A stretch of DNA of 64,000 nt, taken from assembly GCF_029626225.1 (NCBI RefSeq), contig NZ_JARUBP010000001.1, positions 7,750,001 to 7,814,000 on the forward strand, in the 5' to 3' direction. How positions within the stretch are numbered: position 1 is the stretch's first letter; each line of letters begins with the position of its first letter. The notes under the pieces were generated by a model, which did no database searches, was not told the DNA's origin, and saw only the letters and a program-made list of their open reading frames with translations. Source of the stretch: Asanoa sp. WMMD1127 (GTDB lineage Bacteria; Actinomycetota; Actinomycetes; Mycobacteriales; Micromonosporaceae). A program made the position numbers and the translations under genes. Shown piece after piece: positions 7,747 through 27,235 of this stretch.

Positions 7747-7748
7747 GG

Positions 7749-7824: not shown

Positions 7825-8091
7825 TCGCTGGTGTGCCGCACCGATTTCCCGGTGCCGCGCGACCGGTACGAGAGTACAGGATGCGGGCTGTTTCGGGGGC
7901 ATCGGGTGGGGGTACGACACGCGTTGCCCGGGGGTTCCGGGTCGGTTCTCGCCCGGTGACGGCGAAAACAGGGCAAATTAGTCAGATAGTGCTTCCGGCG
8001 CATGGTCCGGCTGCACGATGGGTAGGTAACCGGGGACAGCAACGAGGCCGAGCACGCGGAACAGCGCGTCCGGCACAGGGAAGGAGCCGCA

Positions 8092-8436
8092 ATGCGCGGA
8101 AAGCTTTGGTTCATCGGCGGACTCGCCGCCGGCTTCGTCCTGGGCGCCCGCGCGGGCCGGGAGAAGTACGAAGAGATCGTCACGCAGGCCCGCAAGGTGA
8201 TGGATCACCCGACGGTGCAGGAGGCCAAGGGCACCGCCCAGGCCCAGGCGAACCGCCTCGTGTCCGAGGGCAAGGACAAGCTGAGTCACACCAAGCTCGG
8301 CGAGAAGATGAGCACCGGCAACGGCAACAGCGAGCTCGCCTCGTCGTCGGCGTCGAGCCGCTCGTCGACCATGGGCTCGACCACGTCGTCGACCCCGTCG
8401 ACCTCGTCGGGCGCGCCGACCAAGCCGATGCCCTGA
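8092..8436 (+). CDS. Small YtxH-like membrane-anchored protein
   Basis: 114 residues: a short N-terminal hydrophobic helix with glycines (KLWFIGGLAAGFVLGARAG), then a charged helical segment (~22-75) and a Ser/Thr-rich, probably disordered tail. This layout resembles YtxH/general-stress small proteins, whose function is not well defined. A good ribosome-binding site (GGGAAGGAG) lies 5-6 nt before the ATG. It stands alone, downstream of 260 bp of non-coding DNA and followed by a strong hairpin terminator at 8452-8479. Family assignment is by pattern only. Confidence 0.75.
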   Translation: MRGKLWFIGGLAAGFVLGARAGREKYEEIVTQARKVMDHPTVQEAKGTAQAQANRLVSEGKDKLSHTKLGEKMSTGNGNSELASSSASSRSSTMGSTTSSTPSTSSGAPTKPMP

Positions 8437-8451
8437 CGGGTTCTGGCGTCG

Positions 8452-8479
8452 AAAAGGGGGCCCCTCGGGGCCCCCTTTT
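8452..8479. terminator. Bidirectional intrinsic terminator
   Basis: Perfect inverted repeat AAAAGGGGGCCCC / GGGGCCCCCTTTT with a 2-nt centre, flanked by A and T runs on both sides. It sits between two converging genes (stops at 8436 and 8488) and can serve both. Confidence 0.92.
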
Positions 8480-8487
8480 CCGTGCGC

Positions 8488-9495
8488 CTAGTCCTTGCTG
8501 GAGAACGCGGCGTCGAAGGCCGCGCTCGGGGCGTCGAAGGCCAGCCGGCGGACGAACTCGAGCGCCTCGGGGGCGCCGACGAGCCGGTCCATGCCCGCGT
8601 CCTCCCACTCGATCGAGATCGGGCCGTCGTACCCGATGGCGTTGAGGGCCCGGAAGCAGTCCTCCCACGGCACGTCGCCGTGCCCGGTCGAGACGAAGTC
8701 CCAGCCGCGCCGCAGGTCGGCCCACGGCAGGTGCGAGCTGAGGCGGCCACGGCGGCCGTCGCCGGTGCGTACCTTCGCGTCCTTGCAGTCGACGTGGTAG
8801 ATCCGGTCCTGGAAGTCGAAGATGAAGTTCACCGGGTCGAGCTCCTGCCACACGAAGTGCGACGGGTCCCAGTTGAGCCCGAACGCCGGCCGGTTGCCGA
8901 TCGCCTCGAGGGTGCGCTTGGTGGTCCAGTAGTCGTACGCGATCTCGCTGGGGTGCACCTCGTGCGCGAACCGCACCCCGACCTCGTCGAACACGTCGAG
9001 AATCGGGTTGAACCGGTTGGCGAAGTCCTCGTAGCCCTTGTCGATCATGCTGGCCGGCACGGGCGGGAACATCGCCACGGTGTGCCAGATCGAGCTCCCC
9101 GTGAAGCCCACGACGGTCTTGACGCCGAGCTTGGCGGCCGCGCGCGCGGTGTTCTTGATCTCGTCGGCGGCCCGCTGGCGGACCCCCTCCGGCTCGCCGT
9201 CGCCCCAGATGCGGGCGGGCAGGATGTCCTGGTGGCGCTCGTCGATCGGGTGGTCGCAGACCGCCTGGCCGACCAGGTGGTTGGAGATCGCGAACACCTG
9301 CAGGTTGTATTTGGCCAGGGTCTCGCGCTTGCGGTCGACGTAGCCGTCGTCGGTGACCGCCTTGTCGACGTCGAAGTGGTCGCCCCAGCAGGCGATCTCG
9401 AGCCCGTCGTAGCCCCACTCGGAGGCCAGCCGGCACACCTCTTCGAACGGCAGGTCGGCCCACTGGCCGGTGAAGAGCGTGATGGGTCGCGCCAT
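8488..9495 (-). CDS. Sugar phosphate isomerase/epimerase (TIM barrel)
   Basis: 335 residues of the xylose-isomerase-like TIM-barrel family (AP endonuclease family 2 fold). Typical blocks are present: [17 protein letters not shown] near the N-terminus, [13 protein letters not shown] (Glu/His ligands), [11 protein letters not shown] (Asp/His) and IEWEDAGMD (C-terminal Glu). These supply the divalent metal site. Such proteins isomerise or epimerise keto-sugars and inosose derivatives and often work with Gfo/Idh/MocA dehydrogenases, one of which is at 26009-27235. It is monocistronic, with its own 260-bp upstream region. The substrate cannot be inferred. Confidence 0.88.
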
Positions 9496-14400: not shown

Positions 14401-14420
14401 CTGCACTCCCAGGGACGAGA

Positions 14421-14446
14421 CGGGGGCGCCTGGGCGGGCGCCCCCG
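14421..14446. terminator. Hairpin terminator between two secreted-enzyme genes
   Basis: 10-bp stem CGGGGGCGCC / GGCGCCCCCG with a 6-nt loop, a T4 run on the plus side, 12 nt after the stop of the sorbosone-dehydrogenase-type gene and just before the ThuA gene's ribosome-binding site. It suggests the two minus-strand genes are at least partly separate transcripts. Confidence 0.7.
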
Positions 14447-14457
14447 TTTTCAACGGG

Positions 14458-17292
14458 TTAAGGGAGAGTCCACCGCTGGTTGGCGGCGCCGTTGCAGGTC
14501 CACAGGTGGACCACGGTGCTGTCGGCCGAGTTGTTGCCGCTCACGTCGGCACACTTACCCGAGCTCGGGTTGACCAGCGACGAGTTGGCGCCGGCCGACC
14601 AGTTCTGGGCGGCCGTGCCGTTGCAGGTCCAGAGCTGGATCTTGGTGCCGTCGGCCGTGCCGCCGCCGCTGACGTCCAGGCACTTGCCCAGCGCCCGCAG
14701 CGTCGAGCCGGTACGTGTCCACGTTTGCGCGGCCGAGCCGTTGCAGGTGTAGAGCTGCACCTGGGTGCCGTCGGCGGTCGCGCCGCCACGGACGTCCAGG
14801 CACTTGTTGGCCAAACCGACGACCGGCCCGGTGCCACCGCCACCGCTCGTGTTGAACGTGAACGCGTCCACGTCGAACAGCGCGCCGGTGCCGCCGGAGA
14901 AGGTCAGGAACAGCGTGGTGGTGCCGGCCGGCACCCCGGACAGGTTGGCGGTGACGTTGGTGAACGTCTCCCAGCTGCCGGTGTTGGCGACCGTGGCCGA
15001 GCCGAGCACCGTGCCGGTGGCCGAGCCGGCCCGCACCTGGAGCGTGCCGCCGGCGCCGCCCGAGGAGACCCGCGCGGTGAGCGAGGTGGCGTTATTGATC
15101 TTGTAGGGGTCGAACGAGATCCAGTCGCCGTTGTTGATGTCACCGACCGTCCGGCCGCCCTCGGCGGCGGTCTTGGTGATCAGCGAGACGCCCGACGCGT
15201 TCTTGTAGTGCTCAGCCTGGCGGTGCTTGGGCTGCAGGATGAACTGCTTGTGCGTGGTCAGCCCGCCGTTGTCGGTGTATTCGGCGTCGAAGATCGCGAA
15301 GATGTTCGCCGCCGCGTCGTGCTCCCCGTCGGTCGGGACGGTGATCGACCCGGAGCACCCGTTGACGGACGTGATCTGGTGGCCGTGCTGGTCGTGACCG
15401 AGGACGTACGTCATCTTCGCCCGGGCGCAGTTGATCGTGCCGTCCTCGGGGTCGCTCGCGCTGATGCTGAACGGGATGGTGTCACCGAAGGTGAACAGCT
15501 GCCCGTTGGCCGGCGTGGTGATGTTCACCGTGGGCGCGGTGTTGCCCACGCCGATCTGGACGCTGGCGGTGCCGGTCGCGCCCTGCGGGTCCCGCACGGT
15601 CAGCGTCGCGGTGTAGGTGCCGTTGGACGTGTACGTCTTCGACGGGTTGGCCGCCGTCGACGTGGTGCCGTCACCGAACGCCCACGAGTAGGTCAGGGCG
15701 CCGCCGTCAGGGTCCGTGGAGCCGGCCGACGAGAACGCGACGGTGAGCGGGGCCTGGCCCGAGGTGGGCTGGGCGCTGGCGACCGCCGTCGGCGCCCGGT
15801 TGCCGCCCGCGACGTAGTCGAAGCGGTAGAGGGCCGAGTTGGCGTCGCCGTTGAAGTAGCCGGTGCCGTAGTCGAGCACGTAGTAGGAGCCGTCGGGGCC
15901 GAACGCCGAGTCCATCACCTGCTTGCCGACCCAGGGGAACGTGTCGATCGTGCCGCGGGTGCCGTCGGCGTTGACGTGGATCGGCTTGATCCAGCCGCGG
16001 CCGAACTCGGTGGCGAAGAACTGGCCGTCGAAGCTCTGCGGGAACTTGGTGGTCGACGGGTTCGAGGCGTTGTAGCGGTAGACCGGGCCGCCCATCGGCG
16101 ACTCCGAGCCGCCACCGAACTCCGTCGGGGTGCCGCTGTCGCCGCCGTACTTGATCCAGGCGGCCCGGGCCGGGGGCAGCGTGCCCTGGCCGGTGTTGCG
16201 GAACGAGTTGTTGGTCGCCCCGCCGGTGCAGTTGTACTTCGGGCCGGTCGTGCCGGTCGCGAAGTTCCACTCGTTGTAGGTCTCGGTGCTGGTGTTGGTG
16301 CCGGTGCAGTACGGCCAGCCGTAGTTGCCGGCCGACGTGACCCGGTTGAACTCGACCTGGCCGGAGGGACCCCGGTTGGCGTTGGTGGAGCCGGCGTCGG
16401 GGCCGTAGTCGCCGACCCAGACCACGCCGGTGGCCTTGTCGACGCTGATCCGGAACGGGTTCCGGAAGCCCATCGCGTAGATCTCGGGACGGGTGTTGGC
16501 GGTGCCCGGCGCGAACAGGTTGCCGGACGGGATCGCGTACGACCCGTTGGCGTTGACCTTGATCCGCAGGATCTTGCCGCGCAGGTCGTTGGTGTTGCCG
16601 GCGCTGCGCTGGGCGTCGTAGGCCGGGTTGCGGTTGGTCCGCTCGTCGATCGGCGAGTAGCCGGCCGAGTCGAACGGGTTGCTGTCGTCGCCGGTCGACA
16701 GGTAGAGGTTGCCGGCGGCGTCGAAGTCGATGTCGCCGCCGACGTGGCAGCAGATGCCCCGGTCGGCCGGCACGTCGAGGACCGTGACCTGGCTGCCCGT
16801 GTTGAGCGTGAAGTCGGCGTTGAGAGTGAACCGGGCGAGCCGGTTGACGCCCTGCCAGGCCGTCCAGCTGGTGCCCGTGGCCGGCGCGTCGCCGGCCGGC
16901 GTGGACAGCGGCGGGGCGAAGTAGAGGTAGATGAACCGGTTGGTGGCGAAGCCCGGGTCGACCCCGACGCCCTGCAGCCCCTCCTCGTCGTGCGTGTAGA
17001 CGGGGATGGTGCCGATCACGCTGGTGGTGCCGTTGGCGTCGGTGCGGCGGAGCTGGCCGCCGCGGGCGGTGTGCAGCACGGAGCGGTCCGGCAGCACCGC
17101 CAGCGACATCGGCTCGCCCATCTCGGCGACGCCCTTGGCCAGCGTGACCTGCTGGAAGTCGGTGGCGTTGATGGGGTGCGCCTGCGCGGCGGGCGCGCCG
17201 GCGGCGATGGCACTGAGTGTCGCCGCGACGAGCAGCAGCGCGGAGCCGGCGGCCCGGCGGCGCAACGCGCGTCGATTGTCCATATGAGACAT
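14458..17292 (-). CDS. Secreted PQQ-dependent glucose/sorbosone-dehydrogenase-type protein with PKD, CBM6 and ricin-B modules
   Basis: 944 residues. Signal peptide (1-~38, cut near AAQA-H); GSDH-type six-bladed propeller (~45-500) with HDEEGLQGVGVDPGF, GDIDFDAAGNLYLSTGDD, GFRNPFRISVD and GWPYC; PKD domain (~505-585, SFGDG-like WAFGDGTTS); an Ig-like segment; CBM6 (~690-810); ricin-B (~815-944). Relatives oxidise aldoses or sorbosone with PQQ outside the cell; here the lectin and CBM would place it on polysaccharide. Start ATG 17292 follows AGGAAGGGA by ~6 nt; ATG 17283 is possible. The C-terminal CBM6 and ricin-B modules are near-duplicates of those at 12292. A candidate operator shared with the sugar-transport operon covers the promoter (17380-17394). 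Confidence 0.88.
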   Translation of the reverse strand: MSHMDNRRALRRRAAGSALLLVAATLSAIAAGAPAAQAHPINATDFQQVTLAKGVAEMGEPMSLAVLPDRSVLHTARGGQLRRTDANGTTSVIGTIPVYTHDEEGLQGVGVDPGFATNRFIYLYFAPPLSTPAGDAPATGTSWTAWQGVNRLARFTLNADFTLNTGSQVTVLDVPADRGICCHVGGDIDFDAAGNLYLSTGDDSNPFDSAGYSPIDERTNRNPAYDAQRSAGNTNDLRGKILRIKVNANGSYAIPSGNLFAPGTANTRPEIYAMGFRNPFRISVDKATGVVWVGDYGPDAGSTNANRGPSGQVEFNRVTSAGNYGWPYCTGTNTSTETYNEWNFATGTTGPKYNCTGGATNNSFRNTGQGTLPPARAAWIKYGGDSGTPTEFGGGSESPMGGPVYRYNASNPSTTKFPQSFDGQFFATEFGRGWIKPIHVNADGTRGTIDTFPWVGKQVMDSAFGPDGSYYVLDYGTGYFNGDANSALYRFDYVAGGNRAPTAVASAQPTSGQAPLTVAFSSAGSTDPDGGALTYSWAFGDGTTSTAANPSKTYTSNGTYTATLTVRDPQGATGTASVQIGVGNTAPTVNITTPANGQLFTFGDTIPFSISASDPEDGTINCARAKMTYVLGHDQHGHQITSVNGCSGSITVPTDGEHDAAANIFAIFDAEYTDNGGLTTHKQFILQPKHRQAEHYKNASGVSLITKTAAEGGRTVGDINNGDWISFDPYKINNATSLTARVSSGGAGGTLQVRAGSATGTVLGSATVANTGSWETFTNVTANLSGVPAGTTTLFLTFSGGTGALFDVDAFTFNTSGGGGTGPVVGLANKCLDVRGGATADGTQVQLYTCNGSAAQTWTRTGSTLRALGKCLDVSGGGTADGTKIQLWTCNGTAAQNWSAGANSSLVNPSSGKCADVSGNNSADSTVVHLWTCNGAANQRWTLP

Positions 17293-17469: not shown

Positions 17470-18537
17470 CTACAACTGCCGGTCGACGGCCTCGGAGGCC
17501 AGCTCCGTGAGCACGGGAAGCGCCTCCGCGGAGACCGGAGCGTCGGCCAGCGCGCCCAGGGCGGCGTCCGTACGCACCTTGATCATCTGCTCGATCCGGT
17601 CCAGGGCGCCGGTGTCGATGATGATCTGGCGCAGCTCGGCCGCCCCCTCGGGATCGAGGTCCGGGTTGCCGAACAGCTCCTTGAGCCGGCGCTGCTGTTC
17701 GCGGTCGGCGCTGCCGCGGGCCAGCGCCATCATCACCGTCGGCTTGCCCTCCCGCAGGTCGTCCAGGATGGACTTGCCGGTCACGGCCGGATCGCCGAAC
17801 ACCCCGAGCACGTCGTCGCGGAGCTGGAACGCGTCGCCCAGCGGGTCGCCGAACGCGGCCAGCGCGGCCAGCGCCTCGTCGCCGGCGCCGGCCAGCGCGG
17901 CGCCGATCTGCAGCGGCCGGGTCACCGTGTAGCGGGCGGCCTTCATCCGGATCACGGTCAGCGCGCTGGCCACGGAGCCGTCGCCGACGCCCGAGACGAG
18001 GTCGAGGTACTGCCCCGCGATCACCTCGGTGCGCATGATGGCGAACACGCCGTACCCCTGGTGCACCTGCTCCGCGGAGAGGCCGCACTCGTGGAACATC
18101 TGGTCGGCCCAGGCCGCGCAGAGGTCGCCGCAGAGCAGGGCGGTGTTGCGGCCGTAGGAGGCCGGGTCGCCCCGCCAGGACGAGCGCGTGTGCAGATCGG
18201 CGAAGAGCCGGTGCACCGACGGCTCGCCGCGCCGGCGGTCGCTGCCGTCCATGATGTCGTCGTGGATCAGGGCGAACGCGTGGAACAGCTCCAGCGCCGC
18301 GGACGCCGCGATGATGGGGGTGCCGTCCGCTCCCCCGGCCGAACGCCAACCCCAGTAGCAGAACAGCGGCCGGAGCCGCTTGCCGCCGGCCAGCACGAAG
18401 CGGTGCAGCGTCGTGAAGACGCCGCGCGGCGCGCCGTCGGGCCAGTCCGGGTCCTGGCGTTCCAGGAACGCGGCCAGCTCGGCGTCGAACCGCGCGCGCA
18501 GCTCCGCGGCGTCCACGGGGCGGACGTCGACCGTCAT
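17470..18537 (-). CDS. Polyprenyl diphosphate synthase (Ebo operon)
   Basis: 355-residue class I prenyl synthase. First aspartate motif DDIMDGS (in HAFALIHDDIMDGSDRRRG), second DDVLGVFGD, and the GGKRLRP element near residue 50. It is the last gene of the eight-gene operon and its ATG overlaps the phosphodiesterase stop by one base. It differs clearly from the hopanoid-operon synthase at 241-1251, for instance in its longer N-terminus and the GDLCAAWADQMFHECGLS segment. In this context it probably makes the prenyl donor for the UbiA-type transferase encoded six genes upstream. Chain length is not predictable from the sequence. Confidence 0.92.
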   Translation of the reverse strand: MTVDVRPVDAAELRARFDAELAAFLERQDPDWPDGAPRGVFTTLHRFVLAGGKRLRPLFCYWGWRSAGGADGTPIIAASAALELFHAFALIHDDIMDGSDRRRGEPSVHRLFADLHTRSSWRGDPASYGRNTALLCGDLCAAWADQMFHECGLSAEQVHQGYGVFAIMRTEVIAGQYLDLVSGVGDGSVASALTVIRMKAARYTVTRPLQIGAALAGAGDEALAALAAFGDPLGDAFQLRDDVLGVFGDPAVTGKSILDDLREGKPTVMMALARGSADREQQRRLKELFGNPDLDPEGAAELRQIIIDTGALDRIEQMIKVRTDAALGALADAPVSAEALPVLTELASEAVDRQL

Positions 18538-19943
18538 CACTCCTCCTCGGCACCGACCGGCAGCACCCCGGCCAAGCGCAGCAACAGGTCCTTGACCTCG
18601 GTGGCGGCGAACCGCTCTCGGGCCGCGGCCGGGTCGGAACAGAGCAGCACCGGCCCGTCGGCGGGATCCGCCGGGAGCCGGCCGTGCGAACCCCGCACCG
18701 CGCGGGCGCCCGCGTCGAGCCCGACCACGCTCATCAGGTAGCGCATGCCGAGCTTCTTGCGGGCCAGCGCGACCGCGGCCCGGCCCTTGGCCTTCCCCGG
18801 GTTCTCGGGGTCGAAGAAGAGCTCGGCCGGGTCGTAGCCGGGCTTGCGGTGGATCTCCACGAGCCGCGCGAAGTCGGGGGCGCGGGCGTCGTCGAGCCAG
18901 TAGTAGTAGGTGAACCAGGCGTCCGGCTCGGCGACCAGCACCAGCTCCCCGGCGCGCTCGTGATCGAGGCCGGCGGCCGCCTTGCCCTCGGCGTCCAGGA
19001 CCTCGGCCACACCGGGCAGCCCTTCGCACAGTTTGCGTACGGCGGCCAGGTCGGCCTTGTCCTTGACGTAGACGTGGGCGACCTGGTGGTCGGCGACCGC
19101 GAACGCCCGCGAGGTCCAGGGGTCGAGGTATTCCATGCCGTCCTGGGTGTAGACCTTCAGCAGGCCCTCGGCGCGCAGCAGCCGGTTGACGTCGACGGGC
19201 CGGGACACGTCGGTGATGCCGTATTCGGAGAGCACGACGACGGTCGCGCCGCGCCGGTCGGCCGCGTCCAGCAGCGGGCCGATCTCGGCGTCGAGCGCCG
19301 TGGCGGCCGCGGCCGCCTGGGGCGCGCCGGGCCCGTGGCGTTGCAGGTCGTAGTCGAGATGCGGCAGGTAGACCAGGGTCAGGTCGGGCAGCTGGTTGGC
19401 GAGGATCTGCTCGGCCGCCCGGCGGATCCACCGCGACGAGGCGATGCCGGCGTTGGGACCCCAGTAGGTGAACAGCGGGAAGTCGCCGAGCGCGCCGGTC
19501 AGCTCGTCGTGCAGCTCGGGCGGGTCGGTGTAGCAGTCGGGCTCCTTGCGGCCGTCGGCGTAGTAGATCGGCCGTGGCGTGACCGTCCAGTCGACGTCGG
19601 CGCCCATCGCGTACCACCAGCAGACGTTGGCCACCGTGTAGCCCGGGTGGGCGCGGCGGGCGGCCTGCCAGACCTTCTCGCCGCCCATCAGCCGGTGGTG
19701 CTGCCGCCAGAGGAAGACCTCGCCGAGGTCGCGGAAGTACCAGCCGTTGCCGACGATGCCGTGCCCGGACGGCGGCTCGCCGGTCAGGAACGTGGCCTGG
19801 GCCGAGCAGGTGACCGCCGGCAGCACGGTGCCGAGCTCCGCCTGGAAGCCGCGCTCGGCGACCCCGCGCAGCCGCGGCATCCAGGCCAGCAGCCGCGGCG
19901 TCAGCCCGACCACGTTGATCACTACCAAAGGCGTTGGACTCAT
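18537..19943 (-). CDS. eboF: EboF-like alkaline-phosphatase superfamily enzyme
   Basis: 468 residues, nucleotide pyrophosphatase/phosphodiesterase type. Expected features: LPAVTCSAQATFLTG with the nucleophile-region Thr, GHGIVGNGWYFRD, the metal-site YLPHLDYDLQRHG, LSEYGITDVSRPVDVN and a C-terminal GSHGRLP. In Ebo clusters this enzyme accompanies the UbiA transferase and may remove a phosphate or nucleotide group from the product; the real substrate is unknown. No signal peptide is visible, so it would act in the cytoplasm. Start overlaps the EboE stop (ATGA, 19940-19943), and the stop overlaps the synthase start. Confidence 0.85.
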   Translation of the reverse strand: MSPTPLVVINVVGLTPRLLAWMPRLRGVAERGFQAELGTVLPAVTCSAQATFLTGEPPSGHGIVGNGWYFRDLGEVFLWRQHHRLMGGEKVWQAARRAHPGYTVANVCWWYAMGADVDWTVTPRPIYYADGRKEPDCYTDPPELHDELTGALGDFPLFTYWGPNAGIASSRWIRRAAEQILANQLPDLTLVYLPHLDYDLQRHGPGAPQAAAAATALDAEIGPLLDAADRRGATVVVLSEYGITDVSRPVDVNRLLRAEGLLKVYTQDGMEYLDPWTSRAFAVADHQVAHVYVKDKADLAAVRKLCEGLPGVAEVLDAEGKAAAGLDHERAGELVLVAEPDAWFTYYYWLDDARAPDFARLVEIHRKPGYDPAELFFDPENPGKAKGRAAVALARKKLGMRYLMSVVGLDAGARAVRGSHGRLPADPADGPVLLCSDPAAARERFAATEVKDLLLRLAGVLPVGAEEE

Positions 19944-21130
19944 GTACGCGCTCCAGCGGTTTGGGACAGGCCGAGGTCGACCAGGGTGTCGCGGGCGAAG
20001 GCGAGCTCGGCGGCGATGCCGTCGGCCAGCGCCGCGTCGCCGGCGGGCCGGCGGGCCGGGGGCAGCACACCCCAGGTGTAGGTCTCCACGTCGAGGTGGT
20101 CGCAGAGCGCCGTCGGGCCGCCGACCAGCTCGCCCAGCGCCGCCGTCAGCACCGGCACCGTCGAGGTCAGCGGCGGCATCGGGTCGGCGTGCAGCGGCAC
20201 GTGGTAGTGCACCCGCCAGGCGCCGCCGGACAGGTCGCGGTCGAGGGCCTCGTCGAGGTCGTCCGCCGCGCTGTCCGGGTCGGCCGGGTCCGCGGCGCGG
20301 GCGGTGGCGGCCGAGCGGGTCTGGTGCAGGAAGCGGGGCTCGACATATTCCCGGAGGGTCTCGGCCGCCGCCACCGGGTCGGCCGCCTCGAGCGCCGCCG
20401 ACACCTGCGTCTTGACCACCGGGATGCCGGCCGCGCGGAGGCGGCCGATCGCCGCCGCCGGGTCCTCCCAGGCGCAGGCCAGGTGGGCCAGGTCGAGGCA
20501 GACGCCGATGCGGTCGGTGTCGACGGCGGCGAGGTGGCGCACGGCCTGCGCGGTGGACTCGACGACGCAGCCGGGCTCGGGCTCGAACGCGACCCGAACC
20601 GCGCGGCCGGTCTCCCAGGCCATCCGGGCCAGCCCGCTGGACAGCCGCTCCAGCATCCGCTGCGCCGCGCCCGACTGCGCCGCGTCCCAGGGCGCCCGCC
20701 AGGCGAACGGCAGCGTCGAGATGGAGCCGCGCAGCGCGTCGTCGGGCATCAGGTCGAGCAGCACCCGGGCCAGGTCGAGGGTGTAGTCGAGGCGCTCCGG
20801 CGAGGTCCAGTCGGGGTGGTAGACGGCCTGCTTGACCACGGGCGCGTGGAACGACTGGTAGGGGAACCCGTTGAGGGTGACCACCTCCAGGCCGCGGGCG
20901 TCCAGTTCGGACCGCAGTTGCCGGCGCAGCCGGCCCTGGTCGGCCAGCTCGGCCGCGACCGGGGCGGGCAGCCAGAGCCCGAGGCCGAGCAGGTCGGCGC
21001 CGAGCTTCTCGCGGACCCGCACGGCGTACGTGTCGAGCTGCGCGACGATGCCCGCGAAGTCCTCGGCCGGGTGCACGTTGGTGCAGTAGCTGAGATGGAC
21101 GGTCTGGCCGTCCCGGTGGCGTAGGCGCAT
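19940..21130 (-). CDS. eboE: EboE, metabolite-traffic TIM-barrel protein
   Basis: 396 residues of the xylose-isomerase-like TIM barrel type, longer than usual sugar epimerases. Diagnostic blocks: LSYCTNVHPAEDFAGI at the start, LEVVTLNGFPYQSFH, AFEPEPGC (metal Glu), GVCLDLAHLACAWE (Asp/His) and DHLDVETYTWGVLP at the C-terminus. These match the EboE group linked to the Ebo operon of eustigmatophyte plastids and cyanobacteria. The reaction is not established. The start overlaps the TatD gene's stop by one base. Confidence 0.87.
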   Translation of the reverse strand: MRLRHRDGQTVHLSYCTNVHPAEDFAGIVAQLDTYAVRVREKLGADLLGLGLWLPAPVAAELADQGRLRRQLRSELDARGLEVVTLNGFPYQSFHAPVVKQAVYHPDWTSPERLDYTLDLARVLLDLMPDDALRGSISTLPFAWRAPWDAAQSGAAQRMLERLSSGLARMAWETGRAVRVAFEPEPGCVVESTAQAVRHLAAVDTDRIGVCLDLAHLACAWEDPAAAIGRLRAAGIPVVKTQVSAALEAADPVAAAETLREYVEPRFLHQTRSAATARAADPADPDSAADDLDEALDRDLSGGAWRVHYHVPLHADPMPPLTSTVPVLTAALGELVGGPTALCDHLDVETYTWGVLPPARRPAGDAALADGIAAELAFARDTLVDLGLSQTAGART

Positions 21131-21981
21131 CAGCTGCCCCCGCGCAGGATCGAGTTGCCCTCGAAGAGCGCGCCCGGGTCGGCGTCGTCGTCGAGCTCCA
21201 GCTTGCCGGACTGGCCGTAGAACTCGACGGGGTTCCGCCAGAACACCAGGTCCACGTCGTCCTGCGTGAACCCGCTGGTCAGCATCAGGTCGGCGGTCTC
21301 GCGGGTCAGCAGCGGGTCGGAGCGGCCCCAGTCGGCGGCGGAGTTGACCAGCACCCGCTCCGTGCCGAACTGCTTGAGGATCTCCACCATCCGCGGCGGC
21401 GACATCTTGGTGTCGGGATAGATCGAGAAGCCGGCCCAGCAGCCGGACTCCTTGACGATCCCGACGGTCACCTCGTTGAGGTGGTCGATGGCCACCCGGC
21501 CCGGCTCGATGCCCGACTCGGCGACCACCTTGATGCTGCGCTCCGTGCCGCGGGCCTTGTCGCGGTGCGGGGTGTGCACCAGCGCCGGCAGCTCGTGCGC
21601 GATCGCCAGCTGCAGCTGGGCGGCGAACGTCGTCTCCTCCTCCGGGGTCATCGAGTCGTAGCCGATCTCGCCGACCGCGACCACCCGGTCCTTCTCGAGA
21701 TAGCGGGGCAGCACGTCGAGGACGCCCGCGCAGCGCGGGTCGTTGGCCTCCTTGGGGTTCAGCGCGATGGTGGCGTGGTGCCGGATGCCGAACTGGCCGG
21801 CCCGGAACGGCTCCCACCCGACGAGCGAGTCGAAGTAGTCGGTGAACGAGTCGACCGAGGTGCGCGGCTGACCCAGCCAGAACGCCGGCTCGACCAGCGC
21901 CCGCACGCCGGCGGCCGCCATCCGCTCGTAGTCGTCGGTGGTGCGCGAGCTCATGTGGATGTGTGGGTCGAAGATGCGCAT
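21130..21981 (-). CDS. eboB: EboB, TatD-family metal hydrolase
   Basis: 283-residue amidohydrolase-fold protein. Metal-binding features: FDPHIHMSSR (HxH), VGEIGYDS (Glu), VHTPHRDK (His), AIDHLNE (His) and the late Asp in NSAADWGRSDP. It is a TatD relative, but the set with EboA, EboC, EboE and EboF identifies it as the EboB component. Function in the pathway is unknown; hydrolysis of a small phosphorylated or amide intermediate is a guess. Start chosen at ATG 21981, which overlaps the EboA stop by one base. Confidence 0.87.
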   Translation of the reverse strand: MRIFDPHIHMSSRTTDDYERMAAAGVRALVEPAFWLGQPRTSVDSFTDYFDSLVGWEPFRAGQFGIRHHATIALNPKEANDPRCAGVLDVLPRYLEKDRVVAVGEIGYDSMTPEEETTFAAQLQLAIAHELPALVHTPHRDKARGTERSIKVVAESGIEPGRVAIDHLNEVTVGIVKESGCWAGFSIYPDTKMSPPRMVEILKQFGTERVLVNSAADWGRSDPLLTRETADLMLTSGFTQDDVDLVFWRNPVEFYGQSGKLELDDDADPGALFEGNSILRGGS

Positions 21982-22592
21982 CACGCCTCCTTCCGCAACG
22001 CAGTGCCGGACAACCGGTTGAGCAGCCCCGTGGCGTCGGCCGCCATGGGCCGGCCGGCGGCGGCCCGCTCCTCCGCCAGGCCGGCGAGCATCACCCGCAG
22101 CTCCTCGTCGGCCCGCTCGTCGAGCTGGTCCACGATGGACAGCGGCAGCCCCATGAACACGCACTTGAGCACCGCCTGGCGCCAGGTCGCGGCGTCCAGG
22201 TGGGCGGCGTACGGGCCGAGGGCGGCGCCGACCAGCCGGGTGTCGTTGGTGCGGATGGCGTCGTGCAGCAGTGGCACGCCGGCGTCGCCGACCGGCAGCA
22301 GCGGCAGGGCCCGCAGCACGGCCCGTTTCTCGTTGGCGTCGCCGTATCGGTAGAGGCGCTCCACCTCGGCGGCCACCCGGTCGGCGGGCAGCGCGGCCAG
22401 CAGCAGGGCCCGGGCCGCCTCGTCGGCGGTCCAGCCCGGGGCCTTGCCCAGTGGCGCCCGGCCGCAGGCCCGCGCGGCCCGCGGGAACAGCCGGGCGACC
22501 GCGCCCGGGTCGGCCTCCACCTGGCGCACGGACTCGTCGACCCAGTCCACGGCGGCCTGGGCCAGCGCGGCGCGCAACTCGTCGGGTCTCAT
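21981..22592 (-). CDS. eboA: EboA-domain protein
   Basis: 203 residues, mostly helical, no signal peptide and no catalytic motif. The conserved-looking centre (LPLLPVGDAGVPLLHDAIRT, then AVLKCVFMGLPLSIVDQLDER) is the pattern annotated as EboA domain. It is found only with the other Ebo genes, so it is probably a structural or scaffold part of the system. The ATG overlaps the preceding stop (ATGA, 22589-22592) and is the first Met whose frame has no coding conflict. Identification depends partly on context. Confidence 0.8.
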   Translation of the reverse strand: MRPDELRAALAQAAVDWVDESVRQVEADPGAVARLFPRAARACGRAPLGKAPGWTADEAARALLLAALPADRVAAEVERLYRYGDANEKRAVLRALPLLPVGDAGVPLLHDAIRTNDTRLVGAALGPYAAHLDAATWRQAVLKCVFMGLPLSIVDQLDERADEELRVMLAGLAEERAAAGRPMAADATGLLNRLSGTALRKEA

Positions 22593-23431
22593 CGCGGCTC
22601 CCTTCCCGTCTCGGCGGCTCTGCGGAGAAAGTCGATGGAGCGCGTGGCGACGTCCGGTGCCGCGTGCGAGTGGCGGGGCAGCTCGACCGCGACCAGGCCG
22701 GTGTAGCCGGCCGCGTCCAGCGCGCGCAGCACCGGCGGGAAGTCGATCTCGCCGGCGCCGAACTCGAGGTGTTCGTGCGTGCCCCGCCGCATGTCGTCGA
22801 TCTGCACGTTGACGAGGTGGTCGGCGACCGCGGCGACGCAGTCCGGCACCGGGTCGGGCTCCAGGCAGCGGCAATGTCCGATGTCGAGGGTGATGCCGAA
22901 GCTCGCGGGGGCGCCGAGCGCGGCGTGCAGCCGGCGCCAACCGGCGATGTCCTCGACGAACATGCCGGGCTCCGGCTCGAAGCCGAGCGTGACGCCCCGC
23001 TCCTCCGCCGCCTTGACGGTGGCGGCGCAGCCGTCGACCAGCCGCTGCCAGGCGGTGTCCGGGTCGACCGCCGGCGGCCGGATGCCACTCCAGAACGAGA
23101 CCGCCTCGGCGCCCAGGTCGGCGCCGACCGCGACGGCCCGGCGGAGGAACTCGAGGCGCAGCGCCGGGTCGTCGTGCAGCAGCGTCGGGGCGTGCTTGTG
23201 CCACGGGTCGAGCAGGTAGCGGGCGCCGGTCTCGATGACGACGCCCAGCCCGAGGTCGGCCAGCCGGTTGGCGACCGCGTCGACCCGGGCCGGCAGGCCG
23301 GGCGCGAACGGGTCGAGGTGGTCGTGGTCCAGGGTCAGCGCGACGCCCGCGTAGCCGAGGTCGGCGATCACCGCGAGGGCGTCGTCCAGCCGGTGGTTGG
23401 CGAAGCCGTTGGTGCCGTAGCCGAACCTCAT
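22589..23431 (-). CDS. TIM-barrel sugar isomerase/epimerase-like protein of the Ebo operon
   Basis: 280 residues, AP-endonuclease-2/xylose-isomerase fold. Metal-site blocks: GFEPEPGMFVED (Glu), GITLDIGHCRCLE (Asp/His), VNVQIDDMRRGTHEHLEFG and LVAVELPRHSH (Glu). It is shorter than EboE and not its duplicate. It sits between the prenyltransferase and EboA genes with 4-bp overlaps on both sides. It could isomerise the cyclitol or inosose product of the Ino1-like enzyme (inference from fold: inosose isomerases and dehydratases share it). Confidence 0.85.
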   Translation of the reverse strand: MRFGYGTNGFANHRLDDALAVIADLGYAGVALTLDHDHLDPFAPGLPARVDAVANRLADLGLGVVIETGARYLLDPWHKHAPTLLHDDPALRLEFLRRAVAVGADLGAEAVSFWSGIRPPAVDPDTAWQRLVDGCAATVKAAEERGVTLGFEPEPGMFVEDIAGWRRLHAALGAPASFGITLDIGHCRCLEPDPVPDCVAAVADHLVNVQIDDMRRGTHEHLEFGAGEIDFPPVLRALDAAGYTGLVAVELPRHSHAAPDVATRSIDFLRRAAETGREPR

Positions 23432-24288
23432 GTGGCGGCCACCTTCCGGGTGAGCCGCCGGGCCAGCGGCGCGGCCGCGGCCACCAGCGCGCCCGGCGCG
23501 GGTGCGCCCGCGCCGGCGGCCAGCGCGCCCTGCAGGGCCGGCAACGAGGTGATGCCGGCGCCGACCGCCGCGCGCACGACCGGTGCCGACGGGTCGGCCG
23601 CCGCCTTGAGCTGGGCGGCGCCGTAGCGGGCCGCGTACCAGCCGGCCAGCGCCGCCGGGACCAGCGCCCGCCAGCCCGTCTGGCGGCGAGGGTTGACCGC
23701 GGCCGCCGTCACCGCCGCCGTGCCGACCAGCGTGGCGACCGGGAGCCGGTGATCGGCGCCGGAGACCTCGCGGCGGGACAGCGCGGTGACGGTGTAGGTG
23801 TGCGCGGCGACCAGCAGGGCCGCCGGCACGGCGCGGGCGACCCGGCCGCCGGTGGCGCCGAGCAGCACGTCCAGGCCCCGGCAGGCGGCCATCACGGCCG
23901 GTCCGGCGGCGGTGTTCTTCGCCTTGACGTCGTACGCCCAGACGGCCGCCGCCAGCGGGAGCGCGGCGGCCAGCGCGCGCCGCCCGCCCGCGAGCCGGGC
24001 GACGGTCACGCCGGCCGCGGTCAGCCCCACGGCCACGGTGAGCGCGTGGCCCGAGCCGATCCGGCCGCTGGGGATCGGGCGTTCCGGGCGTTCCTCGGCG
24101 TCGAGCTCCCGGTCGGCCCAGTCGTTGGCGGCCATGCCGGCCCAGTAGAGCAGCACCGACGCCGAGGCGAGGGCCGGGGTGCGGGGGCCTAGCGCCCCCG
24201 CCGCCGCCGCGCCCGCCACCACGTCGCCGGGCACCGAGAGTCCGGCCGGTGCCCGGACCAGCTCGGCGTAGTCGCGCAGCGTGGGCAT
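23428..24288 (-). CDS. eboC: EboC, UbiA-type membrane prenyltransferase
   Basis: 286 residues with 7-9 hydrophobic helices. The signature NDWADRELDAEERPERPIPS carries the NDxxDxxxD prenyl-diphosphate/Mg site, followed by the RPIPSGRI loop typical of the family. A second Asp motif region (AYDVKAKN) is present. It would transfer a prenyl chain onto an acceptor at the cytoplasmic membrane, presumably the cyclitol made by the upstream enzyme, with the chain from the synthase at 17470. Start: ATG 24288, overlapping the ino1 stop; the longer frame upstream lies inside that gene. Confidence 0.88.
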   Translation of the reverse strand: MPTLRDYAELVRAPAGLSVPGDVVAGAAAAGALGPRTPALASASVLLYWAGMAANDWADRELDAEERPERPIPSGRIGSGHALTVAVGLTAAGVTVARLAGGRRALAAALPLAAAVWAYDVKAKNTAAGPAVMAACRGLDVLLGATGGRVARAVPAALLVAAHTYTVTALSRREVSGADHRLPVATLVGTAAVTAAAVNPRRQTGWRALVPAALAGWYAARYGAAQLKAAADPSAPVVRAAVGAGITSLPALQGALAAGAGAPAPGALVAAAAPLARRLTRKVAAT

Positions 24289-25421
24289 CAAGCCAGCCCG
24301 GCGACGAAGCTGCGCAGCAGGTCCCACTGGTCGCTCAGCCCGTGCGGCACGTCGCCGATCGGGTCCTTGAAGAAGAAGGCCAGCTCGGTCAGGGGTCCCT
24401 GCCGGCCGGCCCGGTGTGCGGCGCTGGCGAGCCGCGCCAGGTCGAGCACGAGCGGCGCCGCCAACGCGGAGTCGCAGCCGTGCCAGGAGAACTCCATCCG
24501 CATCCGCACGCCCAGGAAACCGGCGAAGCTGACCAGGTCCCAGGCGGTCTTGAAGTCGCCGAGGTCGTCGACGTACTCGATGCGGGTGTTGCCCTCGGGT
24601 TCGTAGCCGAGCGTTTCCGCCAGCACGCGTTGCTTGCTGGCGGACTTGGCGGCGTTGGGGCCGGGCGCGGCCAGGTTGGCGCCGTCGCCGCCGCCCAGCA
24701 GGTTGAGGCCGGACCAGCTGCGCACGGCCAGGTTGCGCTGGGCGAACATCGGCGCGAGCACCGATTTCACCAGCGTCTCGCCGGTCTTGCCGTCATGCCC
24801 GGCGTACGGGAGCCCGGTCTCGCGGGCCAGCGCGTCCAGTGCCGGGAGCCGCGCGCCGGTCGACGGCGTGAAGTCCACGTAGGACGCTCCGGCGGTGAAC
24901 GCGGCGTAGGCGGCCAGGGAGCTGCCCGGCAGGGGCGTCCCGCCGGCGGCGAGCTCCGTGCGGAGCAGGTCCAGGTCGCCGTGCGCGGGCCGGGGCTCGG
25001 GCAGCGCCTCGGTGGTCGAGACGTTGACGACGACCACCCGCTCCAGCCCCAGCCGGTCGCGGAACGCGGTGATGTCGGCGGCCAGGGCGGCCGCCGTCTC
25101 GGCCTGCGTGCCCCCGGCGGGGACGGCGCGGATGTTCTCCTCGACGGCGGCCAGGTCGGCGGCGACGGCCGCGACCAGCCGGGCCGGGACGACACCGGCC
25201 TCGCCGAGCGTCTCGGCCTTCTTGGCCAGGCATGTGGTGACGACGTCGTGGCCGCCGAACACCAGGTCGGCGATCGGTGGCAGCGCTGGGCCGCGCAGAT
25301 CCGGATGCTCGGTCACGCAACCGGTCGGCTCGGCGAGCCCGGCGCGCAACGCCAGGGCCCCGACCATGCTGGTGGTCGCGACGGATCCGCGCGCGCCTAC
25401 CAACCAGACACCCGTGCTCAT
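24288..25421 (-). CDS. ino1: Inositol-3-phosphate synthase homologue
   Basis: 377 residues. N-terminal Rossmann motif GVWLVGARGSVATTSMVGA binds NAD. Family blocks follow: VVNVSTTE, PYAGHDGKTGETLVKSVLAP, SGLNLLGGGDGANL, then AAKSASKQRVL. This is the bacterial short form. The known enzyme cyclises glucose 6-phosphate to inositol 3-phosphate by internal redox. It leads the Ebo operon, a place where other Ebo clusters hold EboD, a sugar-phosphate cyclase of the dehydroquinate-synthase family; both make a carbocycle. A strong AGGAGGG site lies 5 nt before the ATG. It may make an inositol or a variant cyclitol; a housekeeping copy elsewhere cannot be excluded. Confidence 0.9.
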   Translation of the reverse strand: MSTGVWLVGARGSVATTSMVGALALRAGLAEPTGCVTEHPDLRGPALPPIADLVFGGHDVVTTCLAKKAETLGEAGVVPARLVAAVAADLAAVEENIRAVPAGGTQAETAAALAADITAFRDRLGLERVVVVNVSTTEALPEPRPAHGDLDLLRTELAAGGTPLPGSSLAAYAAFTAGASYVDFTPSTGARLPALDALARETGLPYAGHDGKTGETLVKSVLAPMFAQRNLAVRSWSGLNLLGGGDGANLAAPGPNAAKSASKQRVLAETLGYEPEGNTRIEYVDDLGDFKTAWDLVSFAGFLGVRMRMEFSWHGCDSALAAPLVLDLARLASAAHRAGRQGPLTELAFFFKDPIGDVPHGLSDQWDLLRSFVAGLA

Positions 25422-26008: not shown

Positions 26009-27235
26009 TCAGGCGGCGACTTCGGCGAGCGCCGGTTCGACGTCGGTCCAGACCGTGCCCTGCTCGGCCGACCGCGCCACCGCGTCCAGCACGAGCTGGA
26101 CCTGGAGGGCGTCGACGAACGAGGGCGCCGGGTCGGTGCCGGTGGCGATGGCCTCGATGAAGTCGCGCATCTCGTGGGTGAAGGAGTGCTCGTAGCCGAT
26201 GATGTGGCCCGGGGGCCACCAGGCGGCCATGTAGGGGTGGTCGGCCTCCGTGATCAGGATCCGGTTGAAACCCTGCTCGGCGGCCGGCGCCGCGGAGTCG
26301 TAGAACTCCAGCTCGTTGAGGCGCTCGAGGTCGAACACCAGCGTGCCGAGCGACCCGTTGATCTCGACCCGGAGCCCGTTCTTGCGGCCGATCGCGAAGC
26401 GGCTCGCCTCGTAGGTGGCGATCGCCCCGCCGTCGAGCCGCGCCAGGAACAGCGCGGCGTCGTCGACCGTGACCTGGCCGGTGGCCGGAGCGTCCCCGTT
26501 ACCGGACGAGGCGGCCAGGCCGCTGGACTCGCTCGGCAACGGGCGCTCCTTGACGAACGTCTCGGTCAGCGCGCTGACCCCGGTGATCTTCTGACCGGTG
26601 ACGTACTGGGTCAGGTCGATGATGTGCGCCCCGATGTCACCGAGGGCGCCGGAGCCCGCCTTGTCCTTCTGCAGCCGCCAGACCAGGGGGAACTGCGGGT
26701 CGACGATCCAGTCCTGCAGATAGACCGCGCGGACGTGACGGATCACACCGATCCGGCCGGACGCGATGAGCTGGCGCATCATCGCGACCGCCGGGACGCG
26801 GCGGTAGTTGAACCCGCACATCGACCTGATGCCGTCGGCCTGCGCCTTGGCCGCCGCGGCGACCATCGCGCGGGCCTCGTCGACCGAGTTCGCCAGCGGC
26901 TTCTCGCACAGCACGTGCTTGCCCGCCGCCAGCGCCGCGATCGCGATCTCGGCGTGGCTGTCGCCCGGTGTGCACACGTCGACCACGTCGATGTCGTCGC
27001 GTTCGACGAGCTCGCGCCAGTCGGTCGTGGATGCGTCCCAGCCGAGCTTGTGGGCCGCGGCAGCGACCTTCTGCTCGTCACGGCCGCAGATCAGGGCCAT
27101 CCGGGCCCGTGCCGGCAGGTCGAACGCCGAGTTCACGGTGCGCCACGCGGTGGAGTGCGCGGCGCCCATGAAGGCGTAGCCGACCATGCCGACCCGGAGC
27201 TCACGGCCCTCCGGGAAACGTGAATCAGTGGACAA
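26009..27235 (-). CDS. Gfo/Idh/MocA family oxidoreductase
   Basis: 408 residues. NAD(P) motif VGMVGYAFMGAAHS near residue 15, the family hallmark CEKPLA (~105), and GDIGAHIIDLTQY with the catalytic-region His. The family oxidises sugars, cyclitols or their keto forms. Last gene of the ROK/ABC sugar operon, 14 bp after the binding protein, so it probably starts catabolism of the imported sugar. It begins with TTG (27235), preceded by GAGGGAG at ~7 nt; no ATG or GTG fits better. A Gly/Ser/Ala-rich insert (SSGLAASSGNGDAPA) interrupts the C-terminal domain, so the copy is a little longer than usual. Confidence 0.9.
   Translation of the reverse strand: MSTDSRFPEGRELRVGMVGYAFMGAAHSTAWRTVNSAFDLPARARMALICGRDEQKVAAAAHKLGWDASTTDWRELVERDDIDVVDVCTPGDSHAEIAIAALAAGKHVLCEKPLANSVDEARAMVAAAAKAQADGIRSMCGFNYRRVPAVAMMRQLIASGRIGVIRHVRAVYLQDWIVDPQFPLVWRLQKDKAGSGALGDIGAHIIDLTQYVTGQKITGVSALTETFVKERPLPSESSGLAASSGNGDAPATGQVTVDDAALFLARLDGGAIATYEASRFAIGRKNGLRVEINGSLGTLVFDLERLNELEFYDSAAPAAEQGFNRILITEADHPYMAAWWPPGHIIGYEHSFTHEMRDFIEAIATGTDPAPSFVDALQVQLVLDAVARSAEQGTVWTDVEPALAEVAA

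What the first reader, a model, noticed from the sequence alone, without database searches (positions are those of the whole stretch)
17470..25421. Ebo-like operon led by an inositol-phosphate-synthase homologue and ended by a polyprenyl synthase
Eight minus-strand genes with every junction overlapping by 1-4 bp: Ino1 homologue, UbiA prenyltransferase (EboC), TIM-barrel protein, EboA, EboB, EboE, EboF, polyprenyl diphosphate synthase. Known Ebo operons (eustigmatophyte plastids, cyanobacteria) use EboD, a dehydroquinate-synthase-like cyclase; I see none here. An inositol-type cyclase stands in its place, and a dedicated prenyl-diphosphate supply is added. Inference: the pathway makes a carbocycle, prenylates it at the membrane and trims a phosphate, giving an uncharacterised prenyl-cyclitol lipid or carrier.
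Basis: partly seen in the sequence, partly recalled or inferred. Interest (0 to 1): 0.88.

Follow-up and report, generated by a model that had tools for sequence, protein, structure and literature searches.

The report
Ebo operon with a swapped cyclase
A bacterium, probably an actinomycete, carries a variant of a little-understood gene set (ebo) in which the usual sugar-ring-making enzyme is replaced by a relative of the enzyme that makes inositol; the same swap is seen in other genomes, including a gemmatimonad and salt-loving archaea, so it looks like a real second form of the pathway and offers a test of what ebo makes.

Summary
Eight minus-strand genes (25421-17470) overlap at all seven junctions by 1 or 4 bp: Ino1 homologue, EboC-like UbiA, extra TIM barrel, EboA, EboB, EboE, EboF, prenyl-diphosphate synthase (IDS). 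The genome's only detected DHQ synthase is AroB, and it has a separate mycothiol Ino1.

Of 101 clusters with EboB and EboC, 62 carry Ino1, 35 a DHQS-type cyclase, none both, 4 neither; the TIM barrel is in 61 of 62 Ino1 and 0 of 35 DHQS clusters. An EboB tree suggests repeated exchange of the two front ends. Ino1 plus TIM is best read as EboD's replacement. The IDS is a family-level add-on.

New: secreted GSDH and ThuA genes lie near 18 and 16 of 26 phylum-sample loci, 0 of 40 control regions; other such operons sit in NRPS or type II PKS clusters and on haloarchaeal plasmids.

Most likely: a prenylated cyclitol-derived lipid for export or secreted enzymes; unproven. 'Phosphate trimming' is doubtful: EboF's Asp-His pair is Glu-Tyr in 93 of 93 sequences. 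New variant of a known kind.

The parts
24288..25421 (-). Ino1 homologue (archaeal-type myo-inositol-phosphate synthase family), 377 aa
   Evidence: PF07994 150.7 bits, PF01658 106.6 bits; closest solved structure Archaeoglobus fulgidus mIPS 1u1i, 236 bits, against 52 bits for the five-membered-cyclitol synthase 6k96; D210, K212, N240, K259, K263, K291, D317, K352 invariant in 62 of 62
23428..24288 (-). EboC-like UbiA prenyltransferase (SCO3242 family), 286 aa
   Evidence: NF045897 368.8 bits over cut-off 260; EboC NF035940 139.9 of 250; NDxxDxxxD and YD positions invariant in 63 of 63 Ino1-type sequences
22589..23431 (-). extra xylose-isomerase-like TIM barrel, 280 aa, companion of Ino1
   Evidence: PF01261 133.9 bits; in 61 of 62 Ino1 clusters, 0 of 35 DHQS clusters; E152, E154, D183, H186, E250 invariant in 62 of 62
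21981..22592 (-). EboA, 203 aa
   Evidence: NF035938 161.4 bits over cut-off 50; NF035937 81.8 of 320
21130..21981 (-). EboB, TatD-like metallo-hydrolase, 283 aa
   Evidence: PF01026 43.1 bits; 43% identical to the EboB of the DHQS-type locus L043; nine metal-type residues invariant in 63 of 63 Ino1-type sequences
19940..21130 (-). EboE, TIM barrel, 396 aa
   Evidence: NF035939 412.8 bits over cut-off 250
18537..19943 (-). EboF, type I phosphodiesterase/nucleotide pyrophosphatase family, 468 aa
   Evidence: PF01663 228.3 bits; canonical Asp-His pair replaced by Glu-Tyr
17470..18537 (-). short-chain trans-prenyl-diphosphate synthase, 355 aa, probably C15 (inference)
   Evidence: PF00348 163.2 bits; best solved relative a (2E,6E)-farnesyl diphosphate synthase, 8f8f, 245 bits; Phe five residues before the first Asp motif in 29 of 30
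14458..17292 (-). associated, not part of the core operon: probably secreted GSDH beta-propeller with PKD, CBM6 and ricin-B domains
   Evidence: Pfam; homologue in 18 of 26 phylum-sample loci, 0 of 40 controls; signal-peptide-like start (by eye)
12292..14406 (-). associated: probably secreted ThuA plus 3-keto-disaccharide hydrolase plus CBM6 and ricin-B
   Evidence: Pfam; ThuA homologue in 16 of 26, 0 of 40 controls; signal-peptide-like start (by eye)
26009..27235 (-). associated: Gfo/Idh/MocA oxidoreductase upstream of the operon
   Evidence: PF01408; homologue in 22 of 40 family loci, 4 of 26 phylum-sample loci, 1 of 40 controls
8488..9495 (-). associated: further xylose-isomerase-like TIM barrel
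   Evidence: PF01261 150.8 bits; a strong homologue next to the Gemmatirosa Ino1-type cluster (L186, 602 bits)

Best explanation
The operon is a second, natural form of the ebo pathway, here called the Ino1 type. An archaeal-type myo-inositol-phosphate synthase, working with an extra xylose-isomerase-like TIM barrel, takes the place of EboD and supplies a six-membered cyclitol or cyclitol phosphate from glucose 6-phosphate. EboE and perhaps EboB modify it. EboC then attaches a prenyl chain at the membrane; in this family the chain, probably C15, comes from the operon's own prenyl-diphosphate synthase. The product acts at or beyond the membrane, helping to move a small molecule across it or serving secreted enzymes. 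Shown here: gene content, exclusivity of Ino1 and the DHQS-type cyclase in the clusters examined, exchange of the two in an EboB tree, conserved active-site residues of Ino1, EboB, EboC and the TIM barrel, and positional linkage to sugar-oxidation genes. Inferred: the substrate of Ino1, the prenylation of its product, the chain length, and the export or cofactor role.
For: Own genome shows no EboD and has a separate canonical Ino1. Of 101 clusters with EboB and EboC, Ino1 in 62, DHQS in 35, both in 0, neither in 4; the TIM barrel goes with Ino1 (61 of 62) and not with DHQS (0 of 35). Of 30 actinobacterial genomes searched with the EboD of L043, only that locus's own genome has a strong match; the other 29 best matches are 103-147 bits, whereas DHQS genes beside EboB in the named loci score 272-465 bits, apart from two contig-end fragments at 148 and 155 (best of two cyclase queries). 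EboB tree: the Gemmatirosa Ino1-type cluster nests among DHQS-type rows (98/96), and starred branches force at least three label changes. Ino1 residues invariant in 62 of 62; N240, K263 and K352 align with positions that read Ala in the A. fulgidus mIPS variants 3qw2, 3qvw and 3qvx. Closest solved relative is A. fulgidus mIPS, not Ari2. Three haloarchaeal plasmids carry Ino1, EboF, EboB, two TIM barrels and a UbiA. An EboC homologue farnesylates aromatic acceptors in vitro (PMC9235831, two of four parts read), and the ebo mutants studied in Nostoc keep scytonemin monomer out of the periplasm (PMC6282210, discussion part 1 of 2 read).
Against: No biochemistry on any Ino1-type member is known to me. 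The tested EboC homologue preferred quinoline acids, and no product was seen with phenols or catechols; no cyclitol test is mentioned in the parts read. EboF lacks the canonical Asp-His pair, so any phosphate may need another hydrolase. The three haloarchaeal clusters lack EboA, and the two TIM barrels tested there score low on EboE (27.0 and 20.6 bits). A fourth haloarchaeal locus (Halomarina, L189) has a close Ino1 homologue with no ebo gene within 12 kb. Four clusters have neither cyclase (L036, L062, L158, L067). The clusters are related to each other, so counts are not independent, and the tree tool warned that long branches meet. The link to secreted enzymes is positional only.
Confidence: 0.6

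Rival explanations
1. The cyclitol is first dehydrated to an aromatic or quinone-like ring by the TIM barrels (relatives of IolE-type inosose dehydratases and dehydroshikimate dehydratases) and then C-prenylated, giving a redox-active quinol-like lipid rather than an alicyclic prenyl-cyclitol.
For: The TIM barrel and EboE keep Glu, Asp, His and Glu residues of the metal-site type; weak matches to inosose dehydratase (29.1 bits for P0003; 50.1 and 44.6 for two haloarchaeal copies) and to dehydroshikimate dehydratase (35.2 bits, one haloarchaeal copy); an EboC homologue prenylates aromatic quinoline acids; neighbouring GSDH propellers would need an electron acceptor (inference).
Against: The IolE matches are far below its 290-bit cut-off and the dehydroshikimate match below 1200. 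The tested EboC homologue gave no product with phenols or catechols. On this protein UbiA relatives that prenylate alcohols score like those that prenylate rings (49.7 bits for GGGP geranylgeranyltransferase, 47.3 for chlorophyll synthase).
Confidence: 0.2
2. Ino1 makes a five-membered cyclitol phosphate from fructose 6-phosphate, as Ari2 does in aristeromycin biosynthesis.
For: Ari2 is a MIPS homologue of actinomycete secondary metabolism (PMC11188666, passages seen).
Against: P0001 scores 52 bits against Ari2 (6k96) but 236 against A. fulgidus mIPS. Ari2 groups with the mycothiol Ino1 across a branch of 3.5 changes per column (both are long branches, as the tool warned). Ari2 reads GDDLA where the canonical Ino1 reads GDDIK, and ebo Ino1 keeps that Lys (K212, 62 of 62).
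Confidence: 0.06
3. The operon is a sugar-catabolism module that only resembles ebo: Ino1, TIM barrels, TatD-like hydrolase and EboF act on sugars released by the neighbouring GSDH/ThuA/3-keto-disaccharide-hydrolase enzymes, and the prenyl genes are incidental.
For: Flanking sugar ABC transporter, ROK regulator, Gfo/Idh, ThuA and GSDH genes.
Against: EboE passes its equivalog cut-off. Among the 28 phylum-sample loci, chosen by EboE alone, all 28 also hold an EboC match, and EboC keeps its Asp motif in 63 of 63 aligned Ino1-type sequences. The same operon occurs in NRPS and type II PKS contexts with none of those sugar genes annotated within 12 kb.
Confidence: 0.1
4. The Ino1 homologue is an ordinary spare inositol-phosphate synthase for mycothiol or phosphatidylinositol, captured by chance.
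For: It is an Ino1-family protein with conserved active-site residues.
Against: A canonical mycothiol Ino1 exists elsewhere (660.5 bits, over 638) while this one scores 29.9. It recurs in 62 clusters, including three archaeal ones, and the 28 actinobacterial copies in the tree form one clade, 100/99.
Confidence: 0.04

Closest known systems
ebo operon, EboD type (Yurchenko et al. 2016; Bacteroidetes, cyanobacteria, eustigmatophyte plastids)
   Same: EboA (domain level), EboB, EboC-like UbiA, EboE and EboF; tight operon; predicted prenylated cyclitol
   Different: EboD absent; Ino1 homologue and an extra TIM barrel instead; EboC belongs to the SCO3242 equivalog and is below the EboC cut-off; a prenyl synthase is added in the window's family
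SCO3242/SCO3243 pair of Streptomyces coelicolor, listed with the CDA antibiotic cluster (PMC3610822, passages)
   Same: by name, a putative transferase (SCO3242, which gives its name to the NCBIfam prenyltransferase model) with the next-numbered myo-inositol phosphate synthase
   Different: not described there as an ebo-type operon; that genome region was not examined here
Archaeoglobus fulgidus myo-inositol-1-phosphate synthase (1u1i)
   Same: closest solved relative of the Ino1 homologue, with the aligned catalytic-mutant positions conserved
   Different: its gene neighbourhood was not examined here
UbiA-297, an EboC homologue of marine Flavobacteria (PMC9235831)
   Same: EboC-type UbiA prenyltransferase from an ebo cluster; farnesyl donor
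   Different: acceptors found in vitro are aromatic (best: 8-hydroxyquinoline-2-carboxylic acid); the paper describes EboD in the cluster and its text holds no 'inositol'

Membership tests
ebo operon sensu Yurchenko (eboA-F) | EboA present | tested here: met
   NF035938 161.4 bits over 50; the stricter NF035937 was not reached (81.8 of 320)
ebo operon sensu Yurchenko (eboA-F) | EboB present | tested here: met
   43% identity with the EboB of the DHQS-type locus L043; metal-type residues shared, except that the first Asp is Glu in 3 of 49 DHQS-type rows
ebo operon sensu Yurchenko (eboA-F) | EboC present | tested here: inconclusive
   homologous UbiA, 139.9 bits on NF035940 but below its 250 cut-off; passes the sister model NF045897
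ebo operon sensu Yurchenko (eboA-F) | EboD present | tested here: not met
   one DHQ synthase match in the genome, and it passes the AroB model
ebo operon sensu Yurchenko (eboA-F) | EboE present | tested here: met
   NF035939 412.8 bits over 250
ebo operon sensu Yurchenko (eboA-F) | EboF present | tested here: met
   window EboF scores 514 bits with the EboF of the DHQS-type locus L043
myo-inositol-1-phosphate synthase | family match and conserved Lys/Asn/Asp set | tested here: met
myo-inositol-1-phosphate synthase | conversion of glucose 6-phosphate to inositol phosphate | not testable with these tools
   needs an enzyme assay
five-membered-cyclitol-phosphate synthase (Ari2) | closest relationship to Ari2 | tested here: not met
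   52 bits against 236 for mIPS; tree
alkaline-phosphatase-type phosphodiesterase (EboF) | canonical Asp-His metal pair (motif role recalled) | tested here: not met
   Glu-Tyr in 93 of 93 aligned rows; alignment with phosphonoacetate hydrolase

The most novel reading that the evidence does not exclude
The Ino1-type ebo product is a prenylated, cyclitol-derived redox or carrier lipid that is the dedicated partner of secreted beta-propeller and related enzymes (GSDH/ThuA in actinomycetes and haloarchaea, ScyE in cyanobacteria), that is, a cofactor-like membrane lipid of a kind not yet described, made by two interchangeable cyclase front ends.
Probability: 0.15. Interest if true: 0.9.

Novelty: new variant of a known kind. 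Interest (0 to 1): 0.64.

Why it matters
What ebo operons make was left open in the papers read here. The exchange of EboD for Ino1 plus a TIM barrel on the same chassis narrows it: both front ends should feed equivalent acceptors to the same prenyltransferase, and an inositol-phosphate synthase has a far better known product than EboD. That makes the question testable with labelled glucose or inositol in ordinary Streptomyces. The linkage to probably secreted sugar-oxidising enzymes, and to antibiotic-type clusters in other strains, points to a general membrane or export role like the one proposed for scytonemin in cyanobacteria.

Tried and rejected
A first census was wrong because one query (EboC of L046) had been cut too long and masked real EboC hits; found and replaced. 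A home-made gene caller printed wrong end coordinates and its output was cut; I used it only to spot protein starts. The Tat-type protein upstream of Ino1 in L237 and L037 was matched in those two loci only, so no general rule was drawn. A ScyE-family propeller was seen near Ino1 only in Streptomyces camelliae.

PqqC search: nothing rang even in the controls, so it shows nothing. PqqE: one match far below cut-off (63.8 of 381.35), and no control genome went over the cut-off either. I therefore say only that PQQ synthesis was not detected, weakly. Promoter and terminator scan: no promoter-like site and two terminator-like sites (mean 1.2 in shuffles), none at the operon's end. A fold of 80 bases past the last gene gave a hairpin at -20.1 kcal/mol; not tested against shuffles.

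Sampling bias: the 80 named loci are the best 80 of 574 matches to an alignment whose first row was a DHQS-type EboB, so they lean to the DHQS type; many are short contigs. The seven plasmid loci of the census were picked by hand, six from Ino1 hits and one from EboE hits, so they lean to the Ino1 type. The 40 family loci come from 36 of the 81 positive genomes. The L237 and L238 operons were not in the census. Rows dropped: sequences under a length limit, for example the Ino1 fragment of L041. Rows left out of the flank count: L043 and L062.


Full report
1. What is there. On the minus strand, eight genes run from 25421 to 17470 and overlap by 1, 4, 4, 1, 1, 4 and 1 bp. Family models name them as an Ino1 homologue, a UbiA prenyltransferase of the SCO3242 equivalog, a xylose-isomerase-like TIM barrel, an EboA-domain protein, a TatD-like EboB, EboE, EboF and a trans-prenyl-diphosphate synthase. 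EboE passes its equivalog cut-off (412.8 of 250) and EboA its domain cut-off (161.4 of 50); EboC is below the EboC cut-off (139.9 of 250) but passes the SCO3242 model (368.8 of 260).

2. No EboD found in the genome. The window lies in a 7.97 Mb genome of three contigs, completeness estimate 100%. It shows one DHQ synthase, which passes the AroB model (327.7 of 305). It also has a separate canonical mycothiol Ino1 (660.5 bits, cut-off 638; the operon's Ino1 scores 29.9). So the operon's Ino1 is a second, divergent paralogue. In 30 other genomes of the phylum with EboE, searched with the EboD of L043, only that locus's own genome (G301) has a strong match; the other 29 best matches are 103-147 bits. 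DHQS genes beside EboB in the named loci of other phyla score 272-465 bits with the better of two cyclase queries, apart from two contig-end fragments at 148 and 155.

3. Conservation. EboE was found in 27 of 396 genomes of the phylum sample (26 over cut-off) and in 81 of 121 genomes of the window's own family (79 over cut-off). I fetched 28 loci of the first set (26 genomes, own one left out), 40 loci of the second (36 genomes chosen to cover the genera), 80 named contigs from a genome-collection scan and seven plasmid stretches (L183-L189). Clusters with both EboB and EboC number 101: 28 of 28, 33 of 40, 34 of 80 and 6 of 7. They hold Ino1 in 25, 32, 0 and 5, and DHQS in 1, 0, 33 and 1; both in none; neither in 2, 1, 1 and 0. 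The extra TIM barrel is in 61 of the 62 Ino1 clusters and in none of the 35 DHQS clusters; it also occurs in two clusters with neither cyclase (L036 and L158, the latter on an 11-kb contig). The single DHQS cluster of the phylum sample (L043) lacks Ino1, TIM and EboA. L062 is an ebo locus in pieces without Ino1.

4. Not only actinomycetes. Of four annotated haloarchaeal plasmid loci examined, three (Halobaculum, Halocatena, Natronococcus) carry Ino1 and EboF with a TatD-type EboB, two TIM barrels and a UbiA, without EboA; the fourth (Halomarina, L189) has the Ino1 homologue with no ebo gene within 12 kb. The two TIM barrels of Halocatena score only 27.0 and 20.6 bits on EboE. A Gemmatirosa plasmid has EboE, EboB, EboF, EboC, Ino1 and TIM side by side. 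No DHQ synthase was found on the four Ino1-type plasmid records (Gemmatirosa and the three haloarchaea); their chromosomes were not searched.

5. Exchange. In an EboB tree of 42 rows the Gemmatirosa cluster sits among DHQS-type rows (98/96 support), and the DHQS-type Azospirillum cluster sits with the actinobacterial Ino1 type, on a long branch. Starred branches force at least three changes of label; two remain if the long Azospirillum row is discounted (my count). The same chassis has thus probably taken one or the other front end more than once, which is the strongest evidence here that Ino1 plus TIM does the job of EboD. Caveats: one tree of a short protein, an arbitrary root, and the tool's warning that long branches meet.

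6. Is Ino1 active, and as what? In 62 sequences (window and 61 loci; the L041 fragment dropped) D210, K212, N240, K259, K263, K291, D317 and K352 never vary, while E215 is Gln in 14 and K219 Arg in 15. N240, K263 and K352 align with positions that read alanine in three A. fulgidus mIPS variants. The closest solved relative is A. fulgidus mIPS (236 bits); Ari2, which makes a five-membered ring from fructose 6-phosphate (PMC11188666, passages), scores 52 and falls with the mycothiol Ino1 (long branches). In that tree the 28 actinobacterial ebo copies form one clade (100/99). An inositol phosphate is therefore the likeliest product; the substrate was not tested.

7. The other enzymes. EboC keeps NDxxDxxxD in 63 of 63 Ino1-type sequences, and EboB keeps nine metal-type residues in 63 of 63. 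The TIM barrel (62) and EboE (60 Ino1-type rows) keep Glu, Asp, His and Glu residues. EboF keeps its Thr and an Asp and a His, but the usual Asp-His pair is Glu-Tyr in 63 of 63 Ino1-type and 30 of 30 DHQS-type rows, and the first metal-type Asp is Asn in the window (Asp in 48 of 63 Ino1-type rows) (alignment). So 'phosphate trimming' is uncertain. The prenyl-diphosphate synthase follows EboF in 26 of 33 family clusters and in 2 of 28 phylum-sample loci, both of the same family; two other phylum-sample loci have one elsewhere in the locus. A Phe five residues before the first Asp motif (29 of 30) and its closest solved relative suggest C15 (inference; the chain-length rule is recalled).

8. Neighbours. 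Homologues of the window's GSDH gene lie within the fetched 19.5 kb in 18 of 26 phylum-sample loci (L043 and L062 left out; L036, which lacks Ino1, is among the 8 without) and in 24 of 40 family loci (23 of the 33 with a cluster; my count). For ThuA the figures are 16 of 26 and 24 of 40. In 40 control regions at round-number positions of 21 of the same genomes there were none of either. The own genome has 20 GSDH and 16 ThuA match pieces, so about 5% and 4% of such stretches there would hold one by chance. Fisher p for GSDH, phylum sample against control, is 2.3e-10, without correction for shared ancestry. GSDH and ThuA are upstream of Ino1 in most loci of one unnamed family (f5) and downstream of the operon in the window's genus. 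GSDH is also near two of the three haloarchaeal clusters. In the 80 named loci of other phyla (47 with DHQS, 33 with no cyclase seen; many short contigs; queries taken from actinobacteria) GSDH was seen in 1 and ThuA in 2. In 15 of 28 phylum-sample loci, 1 of 40 family loci and 0 of 40 controls there is a relative of a TIM barrel with a Tat-like start (L044 itself counted; two of the 15 match weakly). Other Ino1-type operons sit in an NRPS cluster, a type II PKS cluster or beside a ScyD/ScyE-family propeller.

9. Mechanism. The best-supported reading is in Best explanation. The membrane or export role leans on the Nostoc work: deletion of any ebo gene studied (eboD was not) keeps scytonemin monomer in the cytoplasm, while a scyE deletion lets it reach the periplasm (PMC6282210, discussion part 1 of 2). 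That result favours export over a cofactor role for ScyE and counts against my most novel reading. The prenyl-cyclitol idea itself is Yurchenko's (PMC5133447).

10. Novelty. The main text of PMC5133447 has no 'inositol', though it mentions actinobacterial EboA fused to a xylose-isomerase-like domain and clusters without eboD. Searches listed no paper that, by its title, abstract start or term counts, describes ebo genes with an inositol-phosphate synthase (one search listed 30 of 38); most subscription papers are not in that library. SCO3242 and SCO3243 appear as individual genes of the CDA cluster. I file it as a new variant of a known kind.

Noticed in passing
window 12292-17292 and own genome: The genome has 20 GSDH (PQQ-type propeller) match pieces and 16 ThuA pieces but no PqqE over the model's cut-off: many sugar-dehydrogenase-like proteins without a detected PQQ pathway. 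The PqqE control was weak.
   Followed up: partly
L237 11968-19194 and L238 11965-19149: Complete Ino1-type ebo operons lie beside NRPS genes and beside type II PKS genes (the latter with amidase and glutamine-synthetase-family genes) on Streptomyces plasmids.
   Followed up: partly
L152, L154, L161, L168, L173: EboE-family genes in the window's family with no other ebo gene detected in the fetched stretch.
   Followed up: no
L073, L074, L077 and others of L063-L142: 32 of the 80 named loci, many of them Planctomycetota or Verrucomicrobiota, show EboB with no other ebo gene detected in the stretch held; some stretches are short.
   Followed up: no
L060 about 7211-8632: TIM barrel and EboA appear fused in one 473-aa frame, matching the actinobacterial hybrid mentioned in PMC5133447.
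   Followed up: partly
L062: An ebo locus in pieces (partial EboC, split EboE, no Ino1), possibly decaying or badly assembled.
   Followed up: no
L187 22928-23251: The PLSDB gene table puts a predicted tetracycline-resistance gene exactly on a 2Fe-2S protein gene, which looks like a mis-prediction.
   Followed up: no
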